Shown one piece after another: positions 37,265-63,492 of a DNA stretch of 64,000 nt. The notes beneath the pieces are model-generated. The model was given only the letters and a program-made list of their open reading frames with translations, did not search any database and was not told the origin of the DNA. A program made the translations under genes and the position numbers. Every line of letters starts with the position of its first letter. The first letter of the stretch is position 1. Origin of the DNA: Fusobacterium mortiferum ATCC 9817 (GTDB taxonomy: Bacteria > Fusobacteriota > Fusobacteriia > Fusobacteriales > Fusobacteriaceae); contig NZ_GL987988.1 in the NCBI RefSeq assembly GCF_000158195.2, positions 705,847-769,846 on the forward strand, in the 5' to 3' direction.

Positions 37265-38248
37265 CTAGTTAATCTCCTTTAAAGGTTTCATTTTTTTACT
37301 TCTAGCATAAGAAATTAAATCTGCATAAGCTTCTCCTCTTGTTTTTCTATATGGAAGTAAAGGAGATTTTACTCCATGAACTCTAAAATCATTTTTATAA
37401 TCTGTTAACGTCTTAGCAAAATAAACTTTAAATTCACTTCCCCCTATCCCAGCACGGACAAAATAGATATATCCTTTTTCATCAATAAATGCTGATGAGT
37501 TGTTAAAATCATTATCACTAAACTCTTCAATTACAGGAGCTGGAGAAGTAGGTAATTTCAAATTATTTTGATTTTCATACTCCTTCTCTTTAGCGGATAT
37601 ATCTTTCTCCATTTCAGAAAGAAGTTTTTTCATAGCTTCAATCTCTTTTTTTGCCGAGCTAAGTTCAGCAGGAGAAGATGATTTTTTAATCTGTTTTTCA
37701 ATACTTTTAATAGCTCCTAAAGATTTTTTAGAAATGCTGCCTTTGTATTCAACAGCTCTTTTAGGTTCTGCTGGAGAGAGAGCTAGTTCGATTAGCTCTC
37801 TTATATCCTCCATGTTTTTCACACCTTTTTCCATAATGTCTAATGCTAATTGAGGATCAACATCTTTATGAGTAAGAAGTCTAACAGCTACTCCAGAGAG
37901 AGAACTGATATAATCTTTCATATGCGGGGCTTGGATGTAGAGCTCATAAGTTTTTAAAAGCTCACTCACCTTATCTTTAGTGAAGCCAAGATGACTATAC
38001 CAAGCCATGAAGCTACCCTCTTTAGCTTTTTGAAGTTTTATTTTAACTTCCACAAGTGCCATACAGATATCATATTTGGAAGAACTATATCTCTTAAAAC
38101 TATTTGAAATAAGTTCCTCTTTTTTTTCAATGAAGGCTTTATCTTCTGCATTGATTTCGTAACTCTCGAAATCAAAAGTTGAATGCCATTCTACTTCCTG
38201 CATAGTATTTTTTAATTTATCAAACATAGCTAATTTATTTGACATCAT
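37265..38248 (-). CDS. ParA partner / DUF3102-like DNA-binding protein
   Basis: This 327-residue protein starts at the ATGATG at 38248, chosen because GGAGG lies four to seven bases upstream and the start overlaps the parA stop (ATGA). An in-frame start at 38314 has no ribosome site. Residues 30-130 are helical and include GFTKDKVSELLKTYELYI, like the HTH of DUF3102. A coiled coil (about 170-230) and a C-terminal alpha/beta part follow. A role as centromere-binding partner of ParA is inferred from context only. Confidence 0.6.
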   Translation of the reverse strand: MMSNKLAMFDKLKNTMQEVEWHSTFDFESYEINAEDKAFIEKKEELISNSFKRYSSSKYDICMALVEVKIKLQKAKEGSFMAWYSHLGFTKDKVSELLKTYELYIQAPHMKDYISSLSGVAVRLLTHKDVDPQLALDIMEKGVKNMEDIRELIELALSPAEPKRAVEYKGSISKKSLGAIKSIEKQIKKSSSPAELSSAKKEIEAMKKLLSEMEKDISAKEKEYENQNNLKLPTSPAPVIEEFSDNDFNNSSAFIDEKGYIYFVRAGIGGSEFKVYFAKTLTDYKNDFRVHGVKSPLLPYRKTRGEAYADLISYARSKKMKPLKEIN

Positions 38249-38955
38249 AACACCTCCAGAACCTGTAAAAATAATTCTTGAAGTGTCACAGCATCTTTTG
38301 CTCTGTATTCCCAAATTGTTTTTCCTTCATCAATAGCTTTTGAAATGAAAGAACTTTGTTTTATAGGAACAGAAAGTAAAATATTTTGAGAAACAATCTT
38401 CTTTAAATTATCATAGTACTCTCTCTCAAGCTTGGTTCTCCCAGTACGATTTGGAATAATAGCTTTAACTTTACTTTTAGGGCTTATTTGCTCCATTAAA
38501 GTAATTATAGAACCTAAAGTTACTTGATCAAGGAAAGTTGGGATAACTACTTCATCTGCTAAGTCTATAAATTTTTTATCCAAGTTCAACACAGGTGTAG
38601 AATCAATGAAGATATAATCAAACTCTCCTTTTAAAACATTGATAAAACTCTCAAATCTTACTTCTAATTCCTCTGGAAGTACAGCCGAGTGAAATGGGAT
38701 ATAATAAAGGTTTTTTCTTAACTCTGTGAACCCACCATTACCACTTTTAAGCCATTCATCTAACCCTAGTGGAGTAAGACTACCATTACCACTAAAATCC
38801 AAAATATTATTTTGAGAATCAGAAGTAATTATTATAACCTTACTTCCATCAAGAGCAGCTTTATGTGCAAGTTGGAGAGTTATCCAACTTTTACCAACTC
38901 CACCTTTATTTGCTTTTACCAAAATTGTTTTACATCTATTTTTAAATTCTTCCAT
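38245..38955 (-). CDS. ParA-family ATPase
   Basis: This 236-residue protein has a deviant Walker A KANKGGVGKSW (near residues 14-24), a switch I-like IITSDSQNNILDF, and Walker B YIFIDSTPVLN. ParA/Soj ATPases move plasmids or chromosomes, and phage copies also occur in lysogens that replicate as plasmids. It overlaps the upstream gene by 14 bases and the downstream gene by four, so the three are one unit. Confidence 0.88.
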   Translation of the reverse strand: MEEFKNRCKTILVKANKGGVGKSWITLQLAHKAALDGSKVIIITSDSQNNILDFSGNGSLTPLGLDEWLKSGNGGFTELRKNLYYIPFHSAVLPEELEVRFESFINVLKGEFDYIFIDSTPVLNLDKKFIDLADEVVIPTFLDQVTLGSIITLMEQISPKSKVKAIIPNRTGRTKLEREYYDNLKKIVSQNILLSVPIKQSSFISKAIDEGKTIWEYRAKDAVTLQELFLQVLEVL

Positions 38956-39274
38956 TATCCACCTCTACTAATTTAAATTTATTAGGATTATTTATTACTA
39001 ATCTATAACCTTTTTGATAATCCAAACCGAAAGCTTCAGTATAAGTTTTTATATCTCTATATTCAAATCCAGTTTCTAAATCTATTACTTTTCTACAAAC
39101 CCTAGGTCTTTTAACATATTTTTCTCTATAATCTAAGATATGATGAGCCAACTCAAGTTTATTAACTTTGTATTTATCTGCCAGATTAAAAAGAAAATCA
39201 ATTTCATGATCATGAACATCTAATAAAAAACTATTCATAAAAGAAATTTCTTTAAAGAAATTATCTACAGTCAT
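38942..39274 (-). CDS. Phage hypothetical protein, 110 aa
   Basis: The start is taken as the ATG at 39274 behind GGAAGGTGG; a GTG nine bases upstream is in frame. The protein is helical and charged with no recognised domain. It overlaps both neighbours (14 bases each side), so translation is coupled between the 75-residue gene and parA. It could be a regulator of the partition unit, but this is a guess. Confidence 0.6.
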   Translation of the reverse strand: MTVDNFFKEISFMNSFLLDVHDHEIDFLFNLADKYKVNKLELAHHILDYREKYVKRPRVCRKVIDLETGFEYRDIKTYTEAFGLDYQKGYRLVINNPNKFKLVEVDNGRI

Positions 39275-39488
39275 ACTTACCACCTTCCATGTAATCAGCT
39301 GGAATGGGAGCTAAAATTCTCCCAGCAGCTAAGTCGCCTTGATGAAACATTTTTAGCTTCACTAAATCAAGGATTAATTTTCCAGCTAAGTCACCTTTGA
39401 TAGAATTATATCTATCTGAATCAATTCCTAACTCATCACATAATTCATGAATTTTATTATAATTTTCTACAGAAATTTTTATTGACAT
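39261..39488 (-). CDS. Phage hypothetical protein, 75 aa
   Basis: This is a small mixed alpha protein with LAGKLILDLVKLKMF in the middle and no recognised family. It directly follows the replication initiator stop (no gap), placing it in the replication/partition operon. Confidence 0.6.
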   Translation of the reverse strand: MSIKISVENYNKIHELCDELGIDSDRYNSIKGDLAGKLILDLVKLKMFHQGDLAAGRILAPIPADYMEGGKYDCR

Positions 39489-40415
39489 TTAAGCTCCTTT
39501 TAAACTAGATAGATGACTCTTAAATTCAAATACAGTCATCTTAGACAACTTGCTTTTATTTTTGTTTAAAGTTTCTAAAGGGATATTTATTATTATTTTT
39601 TCAATTTCACTTCTCAATTCTTTATCTGAATAGATACCAGAAAAATATTTAAGCCATTTGATTTTAGCTTCCATATCCTCTGGAGCAGCAGGAGAAATTT
39701 CAGCTTTAATCTCCCAATTATCTCTCAAGGCTTGATAGACAGCACCATCATCCCATTTTTTTAACTGAGCTGTCATAAGAACGAGCTTTATTCTCTCCAA
39801 ACCAACACTACCTTGTTCAACCAAAGTCATGATATTTTTACAAGTAGGAATACTTAAGCCATGACTTTGAAGTGCTGACTTGATTTGATAGATAGTATCT
39901 TTATCCAAATTATTCAAGTTAGAACTACTACTAATTTTTTTACTAACTTCCATTTGGTCTATCTTATTTACTTTATCTAACTTAGTAGTAGTTATTATAT
40001 TTAAATTAGTATTCTTAATATTAGTATTCTTAGGGGTACATTTCATGCTACTACCCCTACCCACATTTGATGTAGGTACTGTACCCTCATTTGATGTAGT
40101 GGGTACATTAAATGTAGGTACATCAGATGTAGGTACTTCTACATTGTTGAGATAATAAAGATTTGAACTTCCTTTTCTTTTTTCTATCTCAATCAACCCT
40201 TTTTCTTCTAAGGATTTTATATATTTAACAACTGTTCTATTGTCTTTTACTCCTAATTCATCACAAAGAGTAGCTAATTTAGGAAAAGCATAATCATTGT
40301 TTCCAGCATGTCTTGCTAAGCAGATGTACAACATTTTTTCATACAGATTTAAATCTCTTCTATCTACTAAAGCATTATCTACCCAAAACCAATCTTTTTG
40401 TCTTCTATCTCTCAT
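39489..40415 (-). CDS. DnaD-like replication initiator with winged-helix N terminus
   Basis: This is a 308-residue protein. The N-terminal 95 residues form a winged helix (FWVDNALVDRRDLNLYEKML, then LCDELGVKDNRTVVKYIKSLEEKGLI), as in RepA_N/phage initiators. A low-complexity linker (about 95-145) has repeated VPT units (VPTSDVPTFNVPT). The C-terminal part (180-300) has helices like DnaD domains, which load helicase. The linker DNA holds iteron-like repeats and is probably the origin, as in the lambda O gene. It is leftward and followed by parA-type genes. Confidence 0.75.
   Translation of the reverse strand: MRDRRQKDWFWVDNALVDRRDLNLYEKMLYICLARHAGNNDYAFPKLATLCDELGVKDNRTVVKYIKSLEEKGLIEIEKRKGSSNLYYLNNVEVPTSDVPTFNVPTTSNEGTVPTSNVGRGSSMKCTPKNTNIKNTNLNIITTTKLDKVNKIDQMEVSKKISSSSNLNNLDKDTIYQIKSALQSHGLSIPTCKNIMTLVEQGSVGLERIKLVLMTAQLKKWDDGAVYQALRDNWEIKAEISPAAPEDMEAKIKWLKYFSGIYSDKELRSEIEKIIINIPLETLNKNKSKLSKMTVFEFKSHLSSLKGA
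39960..40136. other. Candidate replication origin inside the initiator gene
   Basis: Four units ending in ATGTAG(TG)GGTAC or close variants lie at 40062-40136 (ACATTTGATGTAGGTAC, CATTTGATGTAGTGGGTAC, ATTAAATGTAGGTAC, ATCAGATGTAGGTAC). Beside them 39960-40030 is very AT-rich and contains ATTAGTATTCTTA twice. Iterons next to an AT-rich unwinding stretch, within an initiator gene, are the lambda-type origin layout. Confidence 0.6.
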
Positions 40416-59556: not shown

Positions 59557-59940
59557 ATGAAATTAAGTAAACCAATTATTATTAAAAATATTGATGGTTC
59601 AGAAAAAAGAATAGAGGAAGTAAATATAACTAAAGAGAATTTTACTGCAAGAGCCGTATTAGAAGCAGAAAGAGAATTCTTATTGAATGAAGGACTTGGG
59701 CTTCCTAGTAATATCCCATTTGAAAATTTAAAATCTTATCAAGGATATATAGCAGCTAGAATAATAGGGTGTAGATATAATGAGTTATCAGGATTACCTG
59801 GAGATGACTTCTTAAAAATTGTGGGGGTAGTCAAGGGTTTCTTAGATGGCTTGGACTGGGAAATCTTAACGGATCTGATATCAGAAAAGTCGGAGTTATT
59901 ATCGCTAAAGAAACAAGAACAAGCCTCGAATATTGGCTAG
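59557..59940 (+). CDS. Tail assembly chaperone, first frame
   Basis: This 127-residue protein has the P2 gpE/Mu gp41-like tail chaperone pattern (KPIIIKNIDGSEKRIEEVNI, then AARIIGCRYNELSGLPGDDF). A second frame (59808-60011) continues with LEYWLDLPVYEWAEWLETIN, the typical second part. A programmed -1 shift within 59808-59938 would make the long form. AGGAGG lies upstream. Confidence 0.8.
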   Translation: MKLSKPIIIKNIDGSEKRIEEVNITKENFTARAVLEAEREFLLNEGLGLPSNIPFENLKSYQGYIAARIIGCRYNELSGLPGDDFLKIVGVVKGFLDGLDWEILTDLISEKSELLSLKKQEQASNIG

Positions 59941-60011
59941 ATCTCCCAGTTTATGAGTGGGCTGAATGGCTAGAAACTATTAATGAAATACTAGATGAAA
60001 AAAATAAATAA
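59808..60011 (+). CDS. Tail assembly chaperone extension, -1 frame
   Basis: Open from 59808 to the stop at 60009-60011 in the -1 frame relative to the first part, with no start codon and ribosome site of its own. The end (LEYWLDLPVYEWAEWLETIN) looks like the frameshifted domain in contractile-tail phages. A slip could occur at the GGGGG at 59823-59827 or the C-TTA-AAA at 59811-59817, but neither is a perfect heptamer. Confidence 0.55.
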   Translation, partial: LLKNCGGSQGFLRWLGLGNLNGSDIRKVGVIIAKETRTSLEYWLDLPVYEWAEWLETINEILDEKNK

Positions 60012-60015
60012 GTGG

Positions 60016-60044
60016 TTGCTCTTATTATGTTTATACAGTATAAT
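60016..60044 (+). promoter_or_regulatory. Promoter of the added membrane-protein cassette
   Basis: TTGCTC (60016-60021), a 17-base spacer and TATAAT (60039-60044) start just after the tail chaperone stop. This is unusual inside a structural operon. Confidence 0.7.
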
Positions 60045-60064
60045 CATAGTAAGAGGTGGATGGT

Positions 60065-60394
60065 ATGGTAAATAGCTTAAAAGAAGAATGGAGAAGAGTA
60101 AAAACAGATATAAAACAAATTTCTTTGGAATATAAGGAAAACTCTGCCAAAGCTAAAGACAGAATAGAAAAGGAAACCTATGAATCCTCTAAAAGAATTG
60201 ATGAATACTTAGCTGGAAATAAAAAAGTTAAATTGACACTTCTTGAGAAATTTATAGTATTTATTCCAAAAATATTTTGGGTTGTAGCTGTTTTGATTTG
60301 CATTATTCTAGCTATAATAGGAACTTTTTATTGGGTAGTTATTACATTGATTCTATCCATAATAATTGGATGTATACTATCAAAAATAATTTAA
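60065..60394 (+). CDS. Small two-helix membrane protein (moron candidate), 109 aa
   Basis: The ATG at 60065 is preceded by AAGAGGTGG; an in-frame GTG at 60056 is too close to it. The first 60 residues are a charged cytosolic helix (MVNSLKEEWRRVKTDIKQIS at the start). Then two membrane helices follow (about 65-85 and 87-108), separated by a short turn. No family is recognised. It has its own promoter and terminator, so it can be expressed in the lysogen. Exclusion of other phages or a change in host physiology is possible. Confidence 0.8.
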   Translation: MVNSLKEEWRRVKTDIKQISLEYKENSAKAKDRIEKETYESSKRIDEYLAGNKKVKLTLLEKFIVFIPKIFWVVAVLICIILAIIGTFYWVVITLILSIIIGCILSKII

Positions 60395-60407
60395 AATTAG
60401 GTATCAA

Positions 60408-60444
60408 AAGCCACTTATTCAGAAATGAGTAAGTGGCTTTTTTA
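60408..60444 (+). terminator. Terminator of the added cassette
   Basis: AAAGCCACTTATT and GAGTAAGTGGCTTT form a long stem with loop CAGAAAT and T6 following. It overlaps a false in-frame start of the tape measure gene. Confidence 0.85.
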
Positions 60445-60456
60445 TTTGGAGGAAAA

Positions 60457-63400
60457 ATGGCATTAAAGGAACTGGCAATATCTATTGGGATAGGAGCTGC
60501 ATTATCTACAAGTTTTAGTAAAAATATTAAAAGTGCTGGAACTTTGATGGATCAATTAAAAAATAAGACCTCGGATTTAAAAAAAACTCAAAGAGATTTA
60601 AAGAAATATGAAAATATGCAGCTTATTAGAAAAGAAACTAGGAGTGAAATAATTTATTCCCAAAAGGAATTGGTTAAATTAAAAAATAGATTATTAGAGG
60701 TAGATAAAGAGGGAAGAACTCTTGGATCTACTTATAAACTTTTAGAAAAAGAGATCAATCAACTCTCTTCTAAAGAAAAACTTTTAAAAGATAGAATGGC
60801 AATGGTTGCAATTGAAATGAAAGAAGGGAAGGGAGATAACAAAAAGTTACAAGAAGAGTATCGAAAACTACAAAAAGAAACTAAAGGAATTACTAACGAA
60901 TTAACTCCTTTAAAAAAAAGATTGAATGAAGTTGGGAAAGAACTTTCTTCTAATTCAAAAGAAAGTACTAATCTAGGAAAACAACAGCTTAATTTAGAAA
61001 ATAAAATTCAATCTCTAAGAGAAAAACAAAAGAAAAATATAAATGAAATTAGAGAAACTACAAAACAATTAAAAGAACAAAGTATTTCAATTAAAGATAC
61101 AGCAAAATCTTATGAAGAACTTGAAAAAAAGGCAAATGCATATAATAAAGCTTTAGAACACTACCAAAAAGCTAATGCTATAAAAGAAAAAGGTAGTAAA
61201 ATAGCATCTTATGGAAATTTACCTTTAAAAGCTGCTGGTGTTGCAACTGTTGCTGGAGCTGGAGCACTTTCGGAAGCTATAAGAGCAGAAACAGCTTTTG
61301 CAGGAGTAAAAAAGCAATTTGATTTTGAAACGGCTGAAGAAGAAGCTAAATTCAAAGAAGATTTATTAAAACTTGTTGCAGAAAAAAGGATAGCAGTTTC
61401 CTTAGAGGAATTATATGGCATGGCTGCTAATGCTGGTCAAAGTGGTTTGAATAAAGATGAAGCAGTAGGCTATATAGAAGCTGCTGCCAATATGGGAATG
61501 GCTTTTAATATGAGCAGAGAACAAGCTTCTGAGTATATGTTTGCCTGGAGAAATACCTTTGAAATGAATCTGACTCAATTAAAAGAATTAACAGATCAAA
61601 TTAATACTTTAGGGAATAATACAGGAGCTAGTGAAATTAAAATAGCAGAATTTATAACAAGAATGGGAAACCTTCCAACTGTAGTAGGAATGGCTACTAA
61701 TCAAACAGCAGCTCTTGGAGCTTCTTTAATGGAAATGGGAATGGCACCTGAAATAGCAGCAACAGGGGCAAAAAGACTGTTAACTATTTTAAATAAAGGT
61801 ATGGCAGCAACAGGAAGTGAAAAAGAAGCATTAAATATACTAGGATTAGACCCAGACTATTTGGCAAAAGCTACATTAGAGGACCCAGAAAAAGCATTAG
61901 AAACTGTATTTTTTAAGTTAAGTAAGTTAAAAGAACATGAACAAGGGGCAGTTATGACTATGCTTTTTGGAGAAGAGGGGAAAGTAGCTGCTGCTAATAT
62001 AATGGGAGCTTTTGATAGATTAAAAAGAAATATAAATTTAGCAAAAGACTCTAATATTTATTCTGGAGCAACTAATAAAGAAGCTGAAATTCAAAAAAAT
62101 ACAGCTGCTAATCAACTACAGGTTTTAAAGACAGAATTTGATGTAATCAAAGCAGACCTAGGAACAGAATTGTTACCTCTTGTAAAAGAAGGAGCTACAT
62201 ATCTCAAAGCTTTTTTAGAAAAACTTTTAAAAATAATGAAAGAAGATCCAGAAGGATTTAAAAGAATGGTAAAACTCTTTGTTTATGGAACTGGAGCTTT
62301 GTATGGGTTTGGAGGGGCTTTAAAACTTATAGGTGGGTTATTACACGGCTATGCTGGTATTGTTAATTTAGTAGGATTAGCAACTGAAAAAGAATTAGGA
62401 CTTAAAACTATAAGAGCTGCTAAAACAATAACACAACAATTTAAAAACTTAGGAAAAGCTGGACTTCAAGTAGGGAAAATAATAGGAAATGGAATATTGA
62501 ATGGTGGTAAACTTGCAAGTAATGGAGTAGTTAAATTCACCAAAATGAGCATTCAATATTTAAAACTATTAGGAAGTACTGGACTTCAAGTAGGAAAAAC
62601 AATTGGTCTTGGGATACTAAATGGTGGTAAATTTTTAATAGGTGGTTTAGCTAAGTTAGGCAGTCTTGGTATGGCTGCTTTAGCTAGTCCTATCACTTGG
62701 GTTATTTTAGGGATAACCGCTTTAATTGCAGCAGGATATATGCTTTATAAGAATTGGGATACAGTTAAAGAAAAAGCAGTTCAGCTCAAAGATAAAGTAG
62801 TTGAATTAGTAGACAAATATTGGTATTTACTTGGTCCTATTGGTTATATGATTAAAGGTGGAAAAGCTTTATACGAAAATTGGGATACTATAAAATTAAA
62901 AGCTGGTAAATTAAAAGATAAAATTGTAAATATGGTCACTGGAGCAATCGAGCAGTGGAATATATTCAAAGAGAAAAGTTTAGCAATATTAGGAATTCCT
63001 TTTGATTGGTTAGATAAAAAAATAGAAGGAATAAAGGAAAAAGGAGGACATATGCTTGATGGAGTATTAGAGATTTATGAAAAAATAAAGAATTTTAGTA
63101 TAACAGATAGCATAAAAAATGGAGCTTCCTGGCTTGGAGAACAATTTAATATTCCACAATTTGCAACAGGGGGAGTAGTTAATTCTCCAACACTTGCTTT
63201 AATTGGAGAAGGTGGAAGTTCTGAAAGTATAATTCCCCACGAAAGAACTCCTAAAAGCCTAAACTTATGGGAAAAAACAGGGAAATTACTCGGAGCTTAT
63301 AAACCTACTTCTACAACTAATAACAATTCATCAGCAACTATTACTTTTTCTTATTCTCCAACTATTTATGCTAATGATAGCAACAGTTTAGAAACAACTT

Positions 63401-63492
63401 TGAAAAAAGATAAAGGAGATTTTGAACGTTGGTTTAAAGAAAGTATGAATAAATACGAGAAAGAAAGATTTAGGAGAGGTTATGGAAGATAA
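60457..63492 (+). CDS. Tail tape measure protein
   Basis: This 1011-residue protein uses the ATG at 60457 behind GGAGG. Residues 1-230 are coiled coil. A TP901/P2 gpT-like core (EELYGMAANAGQSGLNKDEA and AAALGASLMEMGMAPEIAATG) follows, then hydrophobic helices (about 640-790) with two imperfect repeats of GLQVGK..GILNGGK, and a C-terminal tail with ATGGVVNSPTLALIGEGG. It sets tail length and may be ejected into the host. Confidence 0.92.
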   Translation: MALKELAISIGIGAALSTSFSKNIKSAGTLMDQLKNKTSDLKKTQRDLKKYENMQLIRKETRSEIIYSQKELVKLKNRLLEVDKEGRTLGSTYKLLEKEINQLSSKEKLLKDRMAMVAIEMKEGKGDNKKLQEEYRKLQKETKGITNELTPLKKRLNEVGKELSSNSKESTNLGKQQLNLENKIQSLREKQKKNINEIRETTKQLKEQSISIKDTAKSYEELEKKANAYNKALEHYQKANAIKEKGSKIASYGNLPLKAAGVATVAGAGALSEAIRAETAFAGVKKQFDFETAEEEAKFKEDLLKLVAEKRIAVSLEELYGMAANAGQSGLNKDEAVGYIEAAANMGMAFNMSREQASEYMFAWRNTFEMNLTQLKELTDQINTLGNNTGASEIKIAEFITRMGNLPTVVGMATNQTAALGASLMEMGMAPEIAATGAKRLLTILNKGMAATGSEKEALNILGLDPDYLAKATLEDPEKALETVFFKLSKLKEHEQGAVMTMLFGEEGKVAAANIMGAFDRLKRNINLAKDSNIYSGATNKEAEIQKNTAANQLQVLKTEFDVIKADLGTELLPLVKEGATYLKAFLEKLLKIMKEDPEGFKRMVKLFVYGTGALYGFGGALKLIGGLLHGYAGIVNLVGLATEKELGLKTIRAAKTITQQFKNLGKAGLQVGKIIGNGILNGGKLASNGVVKFTKMSIQYLKLLGSTGLQVGKTIGLGILNGGKFLIGGLAKLGSLGMAALASPITWVILGITALIAAGYMLYKNWDTVKEKAVQLKDKVVELVDKYWYLLGPIGYMIKGGKALYENWDTIKLKAGKLKDKIVNMVTGAIEQWNIFKEKSLAILGIPFDWLDKKIEGIKEKGGHMLDGVLEIYEKIKNFSITDSIKNGASWLGEQFNIPQFATGGVVNSPTLALIGEGGSSESIIPHERTPKSLNLWEKTGKLLGAYKPTSTTNNNSSATITFSYSPTIYANDSNSLETTLKKDKGDFERWFKESMNKYEKERFRRGYGR

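What the first reader, a model, noticed from the sequence alone, without database searches (positions are those of the whole stretch)
60016..60444. Moron: promoter, membrane protein and terminator inserted in the tail operon
A complete expression cassette for a 109-residue two-helix membrane protein sits between tail chaperone and tape measure genes, with a strong terminator that late transcripts must read through. Exclusion or lysogen fitness functions are typical of such insertions. The protein is unrecognised.
Basis: partly seen in the sequence, partly recalled or inferred. Interest (0 to 1): 0.65.

Follow-up and report, generated by a model that had tools for sequence, protein, structure and literature searches.

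The report
Swappable membrane-gene slot in phage tails
Between two tail-assembly genes, a family of Fusobacterium-type prophages keeps a small slot with its own start signal, a built-in RNA lock and a stop signal, in which different small membrane proteins are exchanged; these may help the infected bacterium keep out competing phages.

Summary
The cassette is real: promoter, 109-aa C-terminally hydrophobic protein and strong terminator between the frameshifted tail chaperone and the tape measure. The slot is in every close relative examined, including the named phage Funu1, and absent from more distant tails apart from one independent look-alike.

The cargo changes: at least four sequence-unrelated small membrane proteins, once swapped between otherwise near-identical phages. 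The frame stays: -35, 17 nt, -10, 6 nt, Shine-Dalgarno (SD), and a terminator after the gene.

RNA from the slot's own promoter should start at about the SD and cannot form it; read-through late RNA can. Spacer shuffles and compensatory changes support selection on the hairpin. The same device is known from T4 (I-TevI and others).

Best reading: a lysogen-expressed, late-silenced cassette, most likely for superinfection exclusion acting on tape-measure-dependent DNA entry, as in HK97 gp15. In one swap, cargo and the first ~180 tape-measure residues moved together, hinting at matched pairs (one event). Exclusion and expression timing are untested; how late transcription passes the terminator is unexplained.

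The parts
59557..59940 (+). tail assembly chaperone, zero frame (G-like)
   Evidence: PHROG tail assembly chaperone E 5.2e-8
59835..60011 (+). GGGTTTC slip site and -1 frame extension (T-like), ending just before the slot
   Evidence: GGGTTTN in 11 of 11 chaperones checked
60007..60017 (+). 5' element AATAAGTGGTT, complementary to the terminator's left arm and nearly repeating its right arm; role unknown
   Evidence: duplex -9.4 to -16.3 kcal/mol in 9 of 9 slots, but pairing probability at most 0.10 in 8 of 9
60016..60021 (+). -35 box TTGCTC
   Evidence: TTGCTC/TTGCTT/TTGTTC in 8 of 9 variants at 17 nt from the -10
60039..60044 (+). -10 box TATAAT
   Evidence: conserved place, 6 nt before the SD in 9 of 9 variants
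60019..60055 (+). RNA hairpin of read-through transcripts, covering the first part of the SD
   Evidence: fold; spacer shuffles; compensatory pairs
60051..60059 (+). SD AAGAGGTGG; 60051 is the predicted first base of the slot's own mRNA
   Evidence: sequence and 7th base after the -10; start site inferred
60065..60394 (+). cargo: 109-aa protein, charged N-terminal half, hydrophobic residues 57-109
   Evidence: homologues in L043, L038, L037
60406..60441 (+). intrinsic terminator
   Evidence: pattern in 3 of 98 phylum genomes, only here
60457..63492 (+). tape measure protein, the gene after the slot
   Evidence: PhageMin_Tail E 1.4e-27

Best explanation
A lysogen-expressed moron slot with a T4-style RNA lock. 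In the prophage, RNA polymerase starts at the slot's own promoter; the mRNA begins at about the SD (near 60051), so the SD is free, the membrane protein is made, and transcription stops at the terminator before the tape measure. After induction, late RNA reads through from the chaperone genes, carries the left arm of the hairpin and hides the SD, so the cargo is little translated while virions assemble. The cargo is most likely a superinfection-exclusion protein in the inner membrane that hinders DNA entry by phages with a matching tape measure. Shown: anatomy, conservation of the frame, exchange of cargo, selection on the hairpin. Inferred: start site, lysogenic expression, translational silencing. 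Least certain: the exclusion function and its target.
For: Frame conserved around unrelated cargo. Hairpin as stable in 1, 0, 5, 0, 0, 1, 9, 10, 9 of 500 spacer shuffles for the nine variants; SD unpaired probability 0.01-0.49 on long and 0.74-0.99 on short RNA. Compensatory pairs, 3 of 14 shared between WIN and L038 and 1 of 17 between L140 and Funu1; 36 of 158 pairs are G-U. The T4 review describes the same promoter-in-hairpin device for I-TevI, I-TevII, I-TevIII, segB, Aeh1 mobE, and RBS hairpins for soc, e and others (PMC2988022, passages). Place next to the tape measure, small hydrophobic proteins, and exclusion by HK97 gp15 and Ltp being overcome by changing tail tube or tape measure (PMC10883804, passages). 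Cargo and tape-measure N-terminus exchanged together in L186. A prophage defence aimed at the tape measure needs to be countered in its own lytic cycle (Tab and anti-Tab, PMC10884400, passages), which gives the lock a purpose.
Against: No expression or exclusion data. In WIN, L043 and L182 spacer shuffles hide the SD as well as the real one in 82, 33 and 33 of 200; in the window only the first half of the SD is paired. The cargo-tape-measure link rests on one recombination event and may be a passive tract. The slot promoter could also fire in lytic growth. Late passage of the terminator is unexplained. No sequence match to any known exclusion protein.
Confidence: 0.5

Rival explanations
1. Lysogenic conversion without exclusion: the same lysogen-expressed, late-locked slot, but the proteins serve host fitness (membrane physiology, envelope, other competitors) and have nothing to do with the tape measure next door.
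For: Unrelated cargo families share only size and hydrophobicity; nothing ties the sequence itself to phage entry.
Against: Joint exchange with the tape-measure N-terminus, and the same junction used by HK97 gp15 (position recalled).
Confidence: 0.22
2. Tab-like assembly interference: the protein is made in the lysogen and blocks tail assembly of a superinfecting phage rather than DNA entry.
For: Tab is a prophage-expressed moron product targeting the tape measure (PMC10884400); here too the gene neighbours the tape measure and is apparently silenced late.
Against: Tab shows no noted membrane anchor in the passages seen; these cargos are strongly hydrophobic, which suits an entry block better.
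Confidence: 0.1
3. The dyad over the promoter is an operator for a DNA-binding protein, not an RNA lock.
For: It overlaps the -10 box and is nearly palindromic.
Against: Sequence differs between variants, its centre shifts relative to the promoter, G-U pairs are common (36 of 158) and the SD end is kept in the stem.
Confidence: 0.08
4. A tail-assembly or virion factor of this clade, expressed late with the other tail genes.
For: The slot is in all close relatives; a hairpin before the tape measure also exists in cargo-less L041.
Against: Cargo is exchanged for unrelated sequence with near-identical tail genes upstream; more distant tails do without it; the SD is predicted hidden on late RNA.
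Confidence: 0.06
5. A type I toxin-like small membrane peptide kept by addiction.
For: Small hydrophobic proteins with a structured SD region.
Against: Most are 76-130 aa, several with a charged N-terminal region; no antisense promoter beyond chance numbers.
Confidence: 0.03

Closest known systems
HK97 gp15 moron (superinfection exclusion)
   Same: Moron in the tail region (between chaperone and tape measure genes: recalled); membrane protein; [quoted passage not shown]
   Different: gp15 has one N-terminal membrane helix and YebO-like sequence (recalled from an abstract; the paper is not held); here the hydrophobic part is C-terminal and the sequence unrelated as far as family scans show; no SD hairpin reported in what I saw.
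T4 promoter-in-hairpin control (I-TevI, segB, soc, e)
   Same: RBS hidden by an RNA hairpin on read-through transcripts, and a promoter placed so that its own RNA lacks the hairpin (PMC2988022, passage).
   Different: There late genes are silenced on early RNA; here, by inference, a lysogenic gene on late RNA. Host-type promoter instead of a T4 late promoter.
Tab of P. aeruginosa phage JBD26
   Same: Prophage-expressed moron with its own promoter in the late region; acts on the tape measure (PMC10884400, passages).
   Different: Between the terminase genes, on the opposite strand, silenced by an anti-Tab protein rather than an RNA lock.
Funu1 CDS HMPREF1993_00051 (KR131710)
   Same: Same slot: promoter layout, hairpin, SD spacing, terminator, junction.
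   Different: 76-aa cargo with no detectable similarity to the window's; annotated hypothetical protein.

Membership tests
Phage moron | Extra gene between two genes that are adjacent in relatives | tested here: met
   Chaperone and tape measure adjacent without hydrophobic ORF in 78 of 91 loci, 13 of 91 with it; absence only in tails of 51% tube identity or less
Phage moron | Own promoter and terminator | tested here: met
   Conserved promoter layout and terminator; function inferred from sequence
Phage moron | Expressed from the prophage | not testable with these tools
   No RNA data
HK97 gp15 family | Sequence similarity to gp15/YebO | not tested
   gp15 was not compared directly; no family hit in Pfam or PHROGs
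HK97 gp15 family | Single N-terminal membrane helix (recalled) | tested here: not met
   Hydrophobic residues 57-109, C-terminal
HK97 gp15 family | Blocks phage DNA entry | not testable with these tools
   Needs infection assays
T4-type promoter-in-hairpin control | SD hidden on read-through RNA | tested here: met
   Predicted unpaired probability falls in 9 of 9 variants, but only partly in WIN, L043, L182 (0.31-0.49)
T4-type promoter-in-hairpin control | Own promoter starts inside the hairpin | tested here: met
   -10 box and predicted start lie within the hairpin in 9 of 9; start not mapped
Tab | Located between terminase genes, opposite strand, with anti-Tab gene | tested here: not met
   Slot lies between chaperone and tape measure, same strand
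Type I toxin | Short hydrophobic peptide with antisense RNA | tested here: inconclusive
   51-130 aa; minus-strand promoter-like sites within chance numbers

The most novel reading that the evidence does not exclude
A phage exclusion-group locus: each cargo recognises the tape measure encoded right after it, and cargo plus tape-measure N-terminus are exchanged as a matched module between a fixed promoter-lock and the rest of the tape measure. Phages would switch exclusion type by recombination, as conjugative elements do with TraS/TraG pairs (recalled; listing only), and the RNA lock would keep the excluder from poisoning its own virion assembly.
Probability: 0.2. Interest if true: 0.85.

Novelty: new variant of a known kind. 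Interest (0 to 1): 0.62.

Why it matters
Morons are usually described one at a time. This is a conserved, recognisable slot: the next cargo can be found from the frame alone, as was done here across several phages. It joins two known ideas, the tape measure as a target of exclusion and the promoter-in-hairpin switch of T4, into a simple way for a prophage to express a gene in the lysogen and hush it on late RNA that runs straight through it. If cargo and tape measure are matched pairs, cross-exclusion among these phages becomes predictable from sequence, which bears on phage work in Fusobacterium.

Tried and rejected
Antitermination by the 5' element: AATAAGTGGTT (60007-60017) is complementary to the terminator's left arm in all slots, which could let late RNA escape termination. 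Folding of the read-through stretch gives this pairing a probability of at most 0.10 in 8 of 9 slots; the exception, L042 (0.95), lacks the terminator's end because its contig stops there. Not supported at equilibrium; a kinetic effect is not excluded; the repeat stays unexplained. The similar complementarity in cargo-less L041 (duplex -9.7, probability 0.09) is suggestive only.

Consensus promoter scan: no use here, count below chance. Rfam: only sub-threshold hits on the terminator (PyrG leader 36.7 bits against 65). Family scans: sub-threshold only (window protein: DUF2207_C E 0.003, 17.6 bits against 33; CrgA E 0.0045, 16.7 against 389; Funu1 cargo to Cas12a E 0.003, 13.6 bits, taken as composition). 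Structure: AlphaFold2 on the single sequence gave one continuous helix, pTM 0.35, not interpretable; no fold search was run on it. Cargo outside the slot: for the window protein 2 of 5 matching genomes are weak (E 0.005-0.009); for the L037 cargo three genomes gave E 0.002-0.006 to a conserved 223-228-aa multi-helix membrane protein, judged composition; for the 87-aa and 76-aa cargo only weak further hits, E above 0.001. One search found nothing because my gap range was too short. One search gave two chance hits, L263 and L264. Single-sequence searches of viral contigs with cargo or tail tube found nothing; no cargo match in the phage collection.

Literature: searches in the open PMC library listed no paper, as far as titles and abstract starts show, on a moron slot at this junction in Fusobacterium or on an SD-hiding hairpin of a moron; the library lacks most subscription papers. 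Passages seen: PMC2988022, PMC10884400, PMC10883804, PMC4825925, PMC13190303, PMC11436027, PMC11005410; others only as listings.

Full report
What is there. The window is part of a prophage (G000:C2:705847-769846) with a contractile tail: sheath, FII-type tube, chaperone, tape measure and tail protein X. The best match of the tail tube among phage records is Fusobacterium phage Funu1, 52.6%, so I call the group fusobacterial; the window's own organism is named by no call. The chaperone has a GGGTTTC slip site at 59835 and a -1 extension ending at 60011; GGGTTTN is in 11 of 11 chaperones checked. Then follow promoter, 109-aa ORF (60065-60394), terminator (60406-60441) and the tape measure at 60457.

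The slot is conserved, the cargo is not. I searched the tail tube in 61 family genomes: 21 hold it, in 29 places. I read 18 of those places plus the window. With the 80 viral contigs kept of 100 relatives found in IMG/VR this makes 98 loci. In 7 no tape-measure start lay within the locus. Of the other 91, a script flagged a hydrophobic ORF between tube and tape measure in 12, and reading showed one more (L182), so 13 of 91. Twelve are of the fusobacterial type; the thirteenth, L237, is discussed below. L042 has the slot too but its contig ends before the tape measure. Some loci may be one phage seen in two collections (L040 and L190; perhaps L039 and L185). The slot tracks relatedness: every phage whose tube is about 53% or more identical to the window's has it; those at 51% (L040) and 45% (L041) do not.

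Cargo groups by BLASTP and profile comparison. The window's protein, L043 (72%), L038 (42%) and, more distantly, L037 are one family (window to L037 28%, E 2e-9; profile probability 96%). The 87-aa protein of L039 and five IMG/VR loci, the 51-aa protein of L042 and the 76-aa protein of Funu1 and L189 show no credible similarity to it or to each other. L186 and L182 are weakly alike (33% probability), L186 and L039 weaker still (21%). That makes at least four groups, up to six. All have a strongly hydrophobic C-terminal part. None has a meaningful family match (the L037, L182 and L186 cargo in PHROGs only, the L042 cargo in none).

The frame. I compared nine variants, of which L039 and L140 are close to each other. 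The -10 lies 6 nt before the SD in 9 of 9; a -35 of TTGCTC, TTGCTT or TTGTTC lies 17 nt before the -10 in 8 of 9, and L182 has none recognisable. The motif AAGTGGTTGYTY-N17-TAYAMT occurs in 5 of 61 family genomes, once each, always here, with no hit of the reversed pattern. The terminator pattern occurs in 3 of 98 phylum genomes, again only here.

The lock. The predicted start, 7 nt after the -10 box, is the first base of the SD, so the leader of the slot's own mRNA would be 14 nt in the window. A read-through RNA also holds the spacer and the -35 region, and these pair with the -10 and SD region. Because the 17-nt spacer of a promoter is largely free in sequence, I shuffled it alone: hairpins as stable as the real one arose in 1, 0, 5, 0, 0, 1, 9, 10 and 9 of 500 shuffles for WIN, L043, L037, L038, L039, L140, Funu1, L042 and L182. 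In that order the mean chance that an SD base is unpaired goes, from long to short RNA, 0.33 to 0.98, 0.31 to 0.99, 0.01 to 0.74, 0.04 to 0.94, 0.01 to 0.99, 0.01 to 0.99, 0.03 to 0.99, 0.13 to 0.98 and 0.49 to 0.99. Against my reading: in WIN, L043 and L182 shuffles hide the SD as well or better in 82, 33 and 33 of 200, and in the window only the first half of the SD is paired. Between variants there are compensatory pairs: 3 of 14 shared pairs between WIN and L038, 1 of 17 between L140 and Funu1; 36 of 158 pairs are G-U, and the hairpin's centre moves relative to the promoter. Within the window, the structure upstream of this start is the second strongest of 51 SD-bearing starts. Selection on RNA pairing is the simplest account; a protein operator fits the shifting centre and the G-U pairs less well. 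The extension that ends at 60011 is reached only by frameshifted ribosomes, so few ribosomes would disturb the hairpin (inference).

The swap. L188 and L186 (IMG/VR 2831283689 and 2576861692) are 99-100% identical for the 400 nt before the promoter and stay so through the SD. Their cargo is unrelated (51-55%, the noise of a forced alignment). The first part of the tape-measure gene is 74-93% identical, and from about +1000 they are again nearly identical. In protein terms the difference covers tape-measure residues of about 21-180. Four other phages with L188's kind of cargo agree with it there at 93-100% in the two bins concerned, while differing elsewhere in the tape measure, down to 74%. 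So cargo and tape-measure N-terminus went together in one event. This may be function or simply one recombination tract; n is 1.

An independent look-alike. L237, a contig without the fusobacterial motif, has at the same junction a 92-aa hydrophobic protein, a TATAAT about 28 nt before its start codon and a GC-rich terminator before the tape measure. I see no SD-hiding hairpin of similar strength there. It suggests that this junction attracts such cassettes.

How it probably works. Lysogen: own promoter, free SD, protein made, stop at the terminator. Lytic growth: read-through RNA, SD hidden. The design is that of T4 I-TevI and others, where the late promoter is placed so that late transcripts lack enough sequence to form the inhibitory structure (PMC2988022, passage), here with the roles reversed by inference. 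A lock makes sense if the protein acts against the tape measure made from the next gene. HK97 gp15, Ltp and Sie2009 are membrane exclusion proteins; the HK97 and TP-J34 blocks are overcome by changed tail tube or tape-measure genes (PMC10883804, passage). Tab, which targets the tape measure, needs anti-Tab in its own lytic cycle (PMC10884400, passages). That the cargo here excludes phages is inference from place, kind and linkage.

Open. How late transcription passes a terminator this strong; why the 5' element nearly repeats the terminator's right arm and complements its left arm; whether the different membrane proteins share a target.

Noticed in passing
60007-60017 and 60408-60420: AATAAGTGGTT before the cargo complements the left arm and nearly repeats the right arm of the terminator after it, in all slots; cargo thus sits between direct repeats. 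Antitermination is not supported at equilibrium.
   Followed up: partly
L237:2690-3045: Non-fusobacterial-type contig with its own small membrane-protein cassette (TATAAT, 92 aa, terminator) at the same chaperone/tape-measure junction.
   Followed up: partly
L038:1500-3000: In one relative three more ORFs (57, 119 and 272 aa; the first looks AbrB-like and the last BRO/KilA-N-like by eye, no family scan) are inserted between chaperone and slot, the 57-aa one behind a strong inverted repeat over its promoter.
   Followed up: no
L184 and L187 tape measures, residues about 280-440 and 520-600: Other recombination blocks in the tape measure (40-90% and 65-80% identity in 20-aa bins against L188) that do not follow the cargo.
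   Followed up: no
37265-40415 (-): ORFs that look by eye like ParA, ParB and a replication initiator lie near the prophage's early region: perhaps a phage-plasmid ancestry. No family scan was made.
   Followed up: no
37168 (-): Strongest SD-proximal hairpin among 51 SD-bearing starts of the window (-15.2 kcal/mol), before a 169-aa ORF.
   Followed up: no
60060-60071: Out-of-frame ATG GTA TGG TAA overlaps the cargo start in the window; not present in L043.
   Followed up: no
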